Shown here: positions 28,308-29,475 of the stretch, one piece after another
Layout of the letters: every line of letters starts with the position of its first letter
Position numbering within the stretch: position 1 is the stretch's first letter
Assembly (NCBI RefSeq): GCF_000427425.1
Contig: NZ_KE386494.1
Coordinates: 66,857 to 130,856 of the forward strand
Length of the DNA stretch: 64,000 bases
DNA from: Caldanaerobius polysaccharolyticus DSM 13641
GTDB lineage: Bacteria; Bacillota; Thermoanaerobacteria; Thermoanaerobacterales; Caldanaerobiaceae
Reading direction: 5' to 3'
Made by a program: the position numbers and the translations under genes
Notes under the pieces: generated by a model
Seen by the model: the letters and a program-made list of their open reading frames with translations, nothing else
Told to the model about the DNA's origin: nothing
The model's database searches: none

Positions 28308-28342
28308 ATTTTTGTAAAGTCACAAAGCATTTAAAATACTTT

Positions 28343-28430
28343 GATGCTTCCCTACGCAGGCATTATCCTGACAGGTTCAAGGGTCGGGAACGAGTCCCCT
28401 CTCAGCCTCACACGAAGCTCCCCTAGCATC
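28343..28430 (-). ncRNA. TPP riboswitch (THI element)
   Basis: On the - strand the outer P1 stem pairs GATGCT (28425-28430) with AGCATC (28343-28348). Inside are the conserved GGCTGAGAGG core motif, the GACCCTTGAACCTG segment and GGATAATGCCTGCG, as in TPP aptamers. It controls thiD-cytX-thiM. Confidence 0.97.
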
Positions 28431-28452
28431 CTCTTATTTAGTTTCTAAATAC

Positions 28453-28517: not shown

Positions 28518-28790
28518 TTAGTCCTTTTTATAGTAATTATTATTAATAGCACAATCCGTATAGCCTAACAGGTACGCCGTAGTATATCCTAATTGTGCTA
28601 CTTTCTTAGCAGCTTCAACGACATCTATTAGCAAGTTCATATCAATACCAACAGCTTTAAGTTGCTTTGCTAACGCATTATATTTATTGGCATAATCATT
28701 CCAAACAGCATCAAACATAGGATTATCAGTAATGGAAACATTACCATTAACAATATCGATAATATGATTCATAATCGTTTGATTCAACAT
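28518..28790 (-). CDS. Hypothetical small helical protein, 90 residues
   Basis: I do not recognise this protein. It has a strong ribosome binding site (AAGGGGG) before ATG 28790, so it is likely expressed. It is soluble and mostly helical, with no Cys pair motif or membrane segment (NPMFDAVWNDYANKYNALAK, DVVEAAKKVAQLGYTTAYLL). The central-to-C-terminal pattern recalls small uncharacterised phage-linked or DUF6809-like proteins, but this is weak. It lies between the thiamine promoter and a toxin-antitoxin module, so it may belong to the same accessory island. Confidence 0.6.
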   Translation of the reverse strand: MLNQTIMNHIIDIVNGNVSITDNPMFDAVWNDYANKYNALAKQLKAVGIDMNLLIDVVEAAKKVAQLGYTTAYLLGYTDCAINNNYYKKD

Positions 28791-28973
28791 TCGGTTTTCC
28801 CCCTTGCATTTTGTATACTTTTTTGCATAGTATATTTCGCGTTTTTATATCCCGTCATCAATCCTCTTTTCCGCAAATTTTACATATATCCTAACCACCT
28901 CCTTTCTTCTCTTTCATTTCCATCGTTTTTTTGTTTATCTCCTCTACCATACTTTCTAAAAATTTTTGGACAC

Positions 28974-28999
28974 AAAAAAGCAGGGTTAAACCCTGCTTT
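28974..28999 (-). terminator. Hairpin terminator at left edge of the toxin-antitoxin module
   Basis: AAAGCAGGG-TTAAA-CCCTGCTTT, with a run of six T on the - strand. It would end the toxin mRNA after it has crossed the whole antisense RNA gene. Confidence 0.7.
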
Positions 29000-29013
29000 A
29001 TGGAATATCCCTG

Positions 29014-29041
29014 TTTACTTTTTTATTACCTGTGCTATAAT
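29014..29041 (+). promoter_or_regulatory. Extended -10 promoter of the antisense RNA
   Basis: TTTACT (29014-29019), a 16-base spacer and TGC-TATAAT (-10 at 29036-29041). The TGn extension and perfect -10 predict strong constitutive transcription starting near 29048. Confidence 0.7.
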
Positions 29042-29047
29042 ATAATA

Positions 29048-29138
29048 ATGAGGCAATCGACCGCAATAGGCGGTTGCCCCAAAGTACGGTTAAAATATCA
29101 TAACCGCTCTGGTGCCAGCAGGGCGGTTATTTTTTTCT
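29048..29138 (+). ncRNA. Probable antisense RNA antitoxin, about 90 nt
   Basis: The unit runs from the extended -10 promoter to an excellent terminator: AACCGCTCTG (29102-29111), loop GTGCCAG, CAGGGCGGTT (29119-29128), then seven T. A 5' hairpin forms from GGCA...TGCC and ACCGC/GCGGT. No reading frame with a ribosome binding site lies in it. It converges on the toxin gene and overlaps its stop codon and 3' untranslated region, as RatA does with TxpA. Function is inferred from layout. Confidence 0.65.
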
Positions 29139-29210
29139 CTTAAAATCGAGGATTGCTACGATCAACATACCGAACATTATCATTAATGACAATGTCTGAT
29201 ACATACTCAT
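29127..29210 (-). CDS. Putative holin-like type I toxin, 27 residues
   Basis: The peptide MSMYQTLSLMIMFGMLIVAI ends in LDFKRKK. This is the short form of the putative holin-like toxin family (Hol_Tox; TxpA/BsrG-like membrane peptides), with the Y-x-x-L-S-L-M-I-x-F-G pattern, one membrane helix and a basic tail. The ribosome binding site GGAGGTGG is strong but sits in a CTCCTT-AA-AAGGAG palindrome (29219-29232), so it may be folded away. Its stop codon lies in the terminator stem of the convergent RNA. It would depolarise the membrane if overexpressed (family knowledge). Too short for routine gene finders. Confidence 0.75.
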   Translation of the reverse strand: MSMYQTLSLMIMFGMLIVAILDFKRKK

Positions 29211-29218
29211 AGCAACCA

Positions 29219-29232
29219 CCTCCTTAAAAGGA
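29219..29232 (-). promoter_or_regulatory. Palindrome covering the toxin ribosome binding site
   Basis: CTCCTT-AA-AAGGAG is a perfect short inverted repeat. Its proximal arm overlaps the GGAGG of the toxin ribosome binding site. Such sequestration is common in type I toxin mRNAs. Confidence 0.55.
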
Positions 29233-29272
29233 GAGTGGCAACCGCACCTGCTTTTCCGACTGCCTCATGTAT

Positions 29273-29281
29273 ATTATACCA
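29273..29281 (-). promoter_or_regulatory. Extended -10 promoter of the toxin mRNA
   Basis: TGGTATAAT on the - strand has a TGn extension and perfect -10, with a weak -35. The -10 and the first transcribed bases closely resemble those of the antisense RNA on the other strand. Confidence 0.6.
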
Positions 29282-29390
29282 TAATTGGTAAGTATCTTAT
29301 AATAAGTACTGCTATGAGTATAAACGGCATAAATTTCAGCTGTGTCTTCAGTTGCACGTTATCTTGCAGTTTTATACATATCGTACACAA
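29274..29390 (-). CDS. Possible 38-residue hydrophobic peptide (doubtful)
   Basis: A frame from TTG 29390 ends with FMPFILIAVLIIRYLPIMV, a membrane-like segment preceded by charged residues (KLQDNVQLKTQLK). It has no visible ribosome binding site, and its end overlaps the toxin promoter. It may be a relic of a small membrane protein or chance. The rest of the gap 29282-29452 shows nothing else recognisable. Confidence 0.2.
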   Translation of the reverse strand: MCTICIKLQDNVQLKTQLKFMPFILIAVLIIRYLPIMV

Positions 29391-29452
29391 GTCCGATAAG
29401 GCACGAAATGTATATTATCAGAAAATTGTGTCCGTCTAACACCGCAATTTGA

Positions 29453-29475
29453 AAAGCAGGCTTTAAACCTGCTTT
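29453..29475 (-). terminator. Terminator after the SPFH gene, at right edge of the toxin-antitoxin module
   Basis: AAAGCAGG-CTTTAAA-CCTGCTTT touches the SPFH stop codon and is nearly identical to the hairpin at 28977-28999. Confidence 0.7.

What the first reader, a model, noticed from the sequence alone, without database searches (positions are those of the whole stretch)
28974..29475. Unannotated type I toxin-antitoxin module with a 27-residue holin-like toxin and convergent antisense RNA
Seen: a 27-codon gene with a strong ribosome binding site in a palindrome, a one-helix peptide with a basic tail matching the putative holin-like toxin pattern, and a convergent RNA unit with extended -10 promoter and strong terminator. 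The toxin stop codon lies inside the antisense terminator stem. Known: TxpA/RatA of B. subtilis and Fst/par of Enterococcus have this convergent layout. Inference: the + strand RNA is the antitoxin. It is too short for standard gene callers.
Basis: partly seen in the sequence, partly recalled or inferred. Interest (0 to 1): 0.75.

Follow-up and report, generated by a model that had tools for sequence, protein, structure and literature searches.

The report
BsrG-like type I toxin-antitoxin module
This is a real, compact pair of overlapping genes, a 27-residue membrane toxin and the small antisense RNA that silences it; it belongs to the same kind as the well-studied BsrG/SR4 pair of Bacillus subtilis and is widespread in thermophilic and other clostridia, so it is a new member of a known kind.

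Summary
The peptide (29127-29210, minus strand) hits Pfam Hol_Tox at 39.3 bits (cut-off 23.3). That family also contains BsrG, a proven type I toxin. In a second genome of the same genus the flanks are unrelated, and only 29283-28974 is conserved (86%). That block runs from the toxin promoter to the toxin terminator. In an alignment of 27 loci from clostridial relatives, all keep the convergent antisense extended -10. The toxin reading frame is under purifying selection. In Thermoanaerobacterium-type genomes, eight loci have a dead toxin with the antitoxin largely kept; none show the reverse. Its first 11 nt pair with its own 3' UTR, with both-sided compensatory changes at 9 of 11 pairs. The Shine-Dalgarno sequence is locked in a hairpin. 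The bsrG mRNA is predicted to fold with the same closed layout. Mechanism (inferred): the full-length mRNA is poorly translated; the ~85-90-nt RNA pairs with the 3' UTR and stop codon and promotes RNase III decay, as for RatA and SR4. No transcript or toxicity was tested. 'Holin' is only a family name.

The parts
29273..29281 (-). toxin promoter: extended -10 (TGG TATAAT), weak -35; predicted start near 29266
   Evidence: sequence; -10 region conserved in most relatives
28977..29266 (-). toxin mRNA (predicted ends)
   Evidence: promoter position and terminator; conserved block in the same genus is 29283-28974
29256..29266 (-). mRNA 5' end, strand of closing helix a (GAGGCAGUCGG)
   Evidence: pairs with 29050-29060; 9 of 11 pairs with both-sided changes in 27 loci
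29240..29252 (-). 5' UTR segment b (AGCAGGUGCGGUU), pairs with the ORF end 29117-29128
   Evidence: fold, pair counts
29237..29245 (-). 5' UTR segment c (GCGGUUGCC), alternative pairing with 3' UTR 29070-29078
   Evidence: pair counts; chosen by the fold in more than half of the relatives
29216..29238 (-). hairpin that sequesters the Shine-Dalgarno sequence (AAGGAGGTG at 29217-29225)
   Evidence: fold; SD pairing probability at least 0.65 in 27 of 27 at 37 and 65 C
29127..29210 (-). toxin ORF, MSMYQTLSLMIMFGMLIVAILDFKRKK
   Evidence: Pfam Hol_Tox 39.3 bits; pS 0.32-0.80 against pN 0.05-0.15
29050..29060 (-). 3' UTR strand of closing helix a; the same DNA encodes the antitoxin 5' end
28977..28999 (-). 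toxin mRNA terminator
   Evidence: terminator scan; conserved in the same genus
29014..29041 (+). antitoxin promoter: TTTACT-16-TATAAT with TG before the -10
   Evidence: promoter scan; extended -10 kept in all 27 loci
29048..29138 (+). antitoxin RNA, about 85-90 nt (predicted ends)
   Evidence: promoter and terminator; fold z -4.28
29050..29081 (+). antitoxin 5' hairpin (GGCAAUCGACCGC...GCGGUUGCC)
   Evidence: fold
29100..29136 (+). antitoxin terminator; its stem overlaps the toxin stop codon
   Evidence: stem pairs with compensatory changes in relatives (helix 3)

Best explanation
A chromosomal type I toxin-antitoxin module of the Hol_Tox (TxpA/BsrG-like) kind. The minus-strand mRNA encodes a 27-residue single-helix membrane peptide that is expected to damage or depolarise the membrane when made in excess. 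The full-length mRNA closes on itself (5' end with 3' UTR, 5' UTR with the ORF end or 3' UTR) and hides its Shine-Dalgarno sequence, so it is poorly translated. The convergent plus-strand RNA of about 85-90 nt is fully complementary to the stop codon and the proximal 3' UTR; pairing makes double-stranded RNA that RNase III cuts. Shown here by sequence analysis: gene family, conserved elements, conserved pairing, selection on the peptide, one-sided decay. Inferred: transcription, toxicity, RNase III decay, low translation.
For: Hol_Tox hit, with BsrG hitting the same model. The conserved block equals the module while the flanks are unrelated. The antisense extended -10 and terminator stem are kept in 27 loci. 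pN is far below pS. Eight loci have a dead toxin with the antitoxin kept (seven complete, one with a damaged terminator), and no locus has the reverse. The 5'-3' closing helix is 97% paired, with both-sided changes at 9 of 11 pairs, and is in the predicted fold of 27 of 27 at 37 and 65 C. The bsrG mRNA is predicted to fold in the same closed form. All studied B. [quoted passage not shown]).
Against: No transcript data and no toxicity test. The complementary stretch (about 85-90 bp) is somewhat shorter than the 100-140 bp of the B. subtilis pairs. The eight toxin-dead loci amount to only about five independent events. NCBIfam gives its best, sub-threshold match to ComI, a competence inhibitor, so the peptide's role may be other than growth arrest.
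Confidence: 0.9

Rival explanations
1. The peptide is a regulatory membrane peptide rather than a growth-arresting toxin, for example a competence inhibitor like ComI, and the antisense RNA only tunes its level.
For: Best NCBIfam match is ComI, 28.3 bits, below its cut-off of 55. The window copy is chromosomal, between a TPP-riboswitch thiamine gene cluster and a stomatin-like gene (gene names from my reading of the ORF translations).
Against: One-sided decay, toxin lost while antitoxin kept, suggests that the peptide is costly when unregulated. Relatives on plasmids and phages fit a maintenance toxin.
Confidence: 0.12
2. The matching 5' and 3' ends of the mRNA are a by-product of an inverted duplication of promoter and start region, not a selected long-range fold.
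For: The two promoters also resemble each other as inverted repeats (I5).
Against: Compensatory changes track both sides over 27 loci, and slid pairings lose the signal. Long 5'-3' complementarities of unrelated sequence occur in divergent Hol_Tox modules.
Confidence: 0.1
3. A non-functional relic or a small interspersed repeat without coding function.
For: Several broken copies exist in relatives.
Against: pN is far below pS; all elements are intact in the window; Hol_Tox is well above cut-off.
Confidence: 0.02

Closest known systems
bsrG/SR4 (B. subtilis prophage SPbeta)
   Same: Peptide in the same Pfam family; SD hairpin; closed 5'-3' mRNA in the predicted fold; antitoxin pairs with the mRNA 3' end (PMC6562991).
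   Different: BsrG has 38 residues against 27; SR4 has 180 nt against about 85-90; bsrG is on a prophage, this copy is not in a recognised prophage.
bsrE/SR5 and bsrH (B. subtilis)
   Same: Toxin length 29-30 residues and 3'-end overlap with the antisense RNA (PMC6562991, table).
   Different: Sequences were not compared here; antitoxins are longer (163-200 nt).
txpA/RatA (B. subtilis skin element)
   Same: Convergent layout, 3'-end pairing, RNA degradation mode (PMC6562991).
   Different: 59-residue toxin, 222-nt antitoxin; sequence not compared here.
ComI (B. subtilis plasmid pBS32)
   Same: 30-position NCBIfam model matches residues 2-21 at 28.3 bits.
   Different: Below the equivalog cut-off of 55; whether comI has a convergent antisense RNA was not checked.
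aapA/IsoA (Helicobacter pylori)
   Same: Inactive mRNA closed by 5'-3' long-distance pairing plus local SD hairpins (PMC6733600).
   Different: Different peptide family and phylum; it works like it in mRNA design only.
par/Fst (Enterococcus)
   Same: Convergent toxin and antitoxin RNAs (own knowledge).
   Different: Pfam assigns Hol_Tox and no other family.

Membership tests
Hol_Tox peptides (PF16935) | score above the curated cut-off | tested here: met
   39.3 bits against 23.3
Type I toxin-antitoxin, TxpA/BsrG-like kind | small hydrophobic peptide homologous to a proven type I toxin | tested here: met
   same Pfam model as BsrG, 34.5 bits for BsrG
Type I toxin-antitoxin, TxpA/BsrG-like kind | convergent antisense gene with its own promoter and terminator overlapping the toxin mRNA 3' end | tested here: met
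   consensus sites conserved in 27 loci; transcription itself not shown
Type I toxin-antitoxin, TxpA/BsrG-like kind | RBS sequestered in the mRNA | tested here: met
   predicted, not probed:
Type I toxin-antitoxin, TxpA/BsrG-like kind | peptide is toxic and the RNA neutralises it | not testable with these tools
   indirect only: one-sided decay
Type I toxin-antitoxin, TxpA/BsrG-like kind | antitoxin promotes RNase III decay of the toxin mRNA | not testable with these tools
   inferred from B. subtilis (PMC6562991)
ComI equivalog (NF052249) | score above the curated cut-off | tested here: not met
   28.3 bits against 55
PepG1 (NF041589) | score above the curated cut-off | tested here: not met
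   12.7 bits against 70
par/Fst | peptide in the Fst/Ldr family | tested here: not met
   Pfam scan gives Hol_Tox only
holin (phage lysis protein) | makes lysis pores as part of a lysis cassette | tested here: inconclusive
   stand-alone module between metabolic genes in the ORF list; function not testable

The most novel reading that the evidence does not exclude
The toxin mRNA carries in its 5' UTR an internal imitation of its own antitoxin: the first 11 nt and the GCGGUUGCC motif match the antitoxin, so the leader occupies the same 3' UTR sites that the antitoxin binds. Two competing inner pairings (b and c) may act as a switch between a silent closed form and a form open to antitoxin or ribosome. 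This design would be shared by Hol_Tox modules across Firmicutes.
Probability: 0.4. Interest if true: 0.55.

Novelty: new member of a known kind. Interest (0 to 1): 0.4.

Why it matters
It extends well-supported TxpA/BsrG-type modules into thermophilic and other clostridia. The held review of clostridial type I systems reports that a homology search found no known type I toxins in most clostridial species, with TxpA-like sequences named only in C. bolteae (PMC6563280). It supplies 27 aligned loci in which the long-range mRNA fold is supported by compensatory changes, which makes the leader-imitates-antitoxin idea directly testable.

Tried and rejected
The same pattern in viral contigs gave nothing. 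Rfam gave no RNA family at the locus, only a TPP riboswitch at 28332-28434. The neighbouring ORF at 29359-29442 (MLDGHNFLIIYISCLIGLVYDMYKTAR) has no family match and no evident ribosome binding site; judged noise. The C. acetobutylicum pSOL locus with a mapped TSS for an unannotated holin-like toxin (PMC9045289) is not in the collections under the accession tried. The paper on bsrG/SR4 structure (PMC3834814) is not held, so whether its published structure shows the closing helix could not be read. The 24-bp direct repeats at both ends of the stretch (28976-28999, 29452-29475) were considered as insertion marks and judged to be similar terminators, since the upstream copy lies outside the block conserved in the same genus. 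Fst/par membership was rejected.

Full report
Check of the observation. The minus strand carries ATG at 29210-29208, 27 codons and TAA at 29129-29127, with AAGGAGGTG 6 nt upstream of the ATG inside an inverted repeat. The plus strand carries TTTACT-16-TATAAT with a TG before the -10 (29014-29041) and a 12-bp stem followed by T residues (29100-29136); the minus strand has a terminator at 28999-28977. The toxin stop codon lies inside the plus-strand terminator stem.

More than chance. The peptide hits Pfam Hol_Tox at 39.3 bits, cut-off 23.3, E = 5.9e-10. It is the only hit over the cut-off in its genome. The predicted mRNA folds with z = -8.75 and the antisense RNA with z = -4.28 against dinucleotide shuffles.

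Relatives. Among 150 related genomes, 24 hold a Hol_Tox match. A leader-plus-start DNA pattern found 19 stretches in named clostridial genomes, among them Thermoanaerobacterium butyriciformans, Alkaliphilus pronyensis, Geosporobacter ferrireducens, Petroclostridium sp. X23 and Thermotalea metallivorans. In 27 aligned loci the leader GCAGGGTGYGGTTGCCAC, the SD hairpin, the ORF, the antitoxin terminator, the GGCAACCGC...GCGG hairpin and the antitoxin extended -10 and -35 are recognisable. In the other genome of the same genus the flanks are unrelated and only 29283-28974 matches (86%), the extent of the two transcription units.

Selection. Between ORFs, synonymous differences per site (0.32-0.80) far exceed non-synonymous ones (0.05-0.15). 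In the order, 13 loci look whole. Eight have a broken or unpromoted toxin with the antitoxin kept: L061, L062, L066, L068, L073, L074 and L076 with the antitoxin complete, and L086 with a damaged terminator. None has a whole toxin with a broken antitoxin. Some loci are relics of both (and my reading of it). Some of the eight share one event, so the independent number is about five; the asymmetry is suggestive rather than proof.

mRNA fold. The first 11 nt of the toxin mRNA (29266-29256) pair with its 3' UTR (29050-29060). In 27 loci 97% of these cells are standard pairs and 9 of 11 pairs show changes on both sides. Sliding the partner by 1-3 columns removes the signal. The inner leader pairs either with the ORF end (segment b, 29252-29240 with 29128-29117) or with the 3' UTR (segment c, 29245-29237 with 29078-29070); the two compete. 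The closing helix is in the predicted fold of all 27 at 37 and 65 C, with SD pairing probability at least 0.65. Because the antitoxin is the complement of the 3' UTR, the leader has the same sequence as parts of the antitoxin. Leader-3' UTR complementarity above shuffles also occurs in several divergent Hol_Tox modules (a Paenibacillus plasmid, a Lacticaseibacillus plasmid, a Streptococcus satellite phage, bsrG), though not in all tested. The bsrG mRNA of SPbeta is predicted to fold in the same closed form with an SD hairpin, z = -6.24.

How it most likely works. Literature on B. [quoted passage not shown] txpA, bsrE and bsrG hide their ribosome binding sites (PMC6562991). In H. pylori aapA/IsoA a 5'-3' long-distance pairing makes the full-length mRNA inert until its 3' end is trimmed (PMC6733600). 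By analogy, here the closed mRNA is weakly translated and the roughly 85-90-nt antisense RNA pairs with the stop codon and proximal 3' UTR and triggers decay. These steps are inferred. A TSS for an unannotated holin-like toxin gene has been mapped in C. acetobutylicum (PMC9045289), which shows that such a gene is transcribed in a clostridium.

Membership and novelty. It meets the sequence criteria of Hol_Tox and of TxpA/BsrG-like modules; BsrG hits the same model. It fails the ComI and PepG1 cut-offs and is not Fst. 'Holin-like' is a family label; nothing here shows a lysis role. Plasmid records derived from RefSeq list relatives of the same length as genes, so such genes are not always missed. 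Verdict: a new member of a known kind, with good comparative evidence for a long-range mRNA fold as the most interesting addition.

Noticed in passing
28332-28434: TPP riboswitch (Rfam RF00059, 76.3 bits) upstream of a thiamine gene cluster on the minus strand.
   Followed up: no
28976-28999 and 29452-29475: Two near-identical palindromic terminators, 88% alike, 476 nt apart; a similar one lies elsewhere in the genome (G000:C3:120450) and in the same-genus genome.
   Followed up: partly
28893-28904: A second exact copy of AAGGAGGTGGTT (minus strand), the toxin's SD stretch, followed by ATATATGTAA with no evident gene.
   Followed up: no
28518-28790: 90-residue minus-strand ORF with no family match over cut-off.
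   Followed up: partly
L068, L073, L074: Thermoanaerobacterium-type copies that lack the toxin promoter and leader, with the ORF joined to an upstream terminator-like sequence; antitoxin kept.
   Followed up: partly
L077 and L084: Toxin ORFs that run past the usual stop into the antitoxin terminator region, giving a longer C-terminal tail.
   Followed up: no
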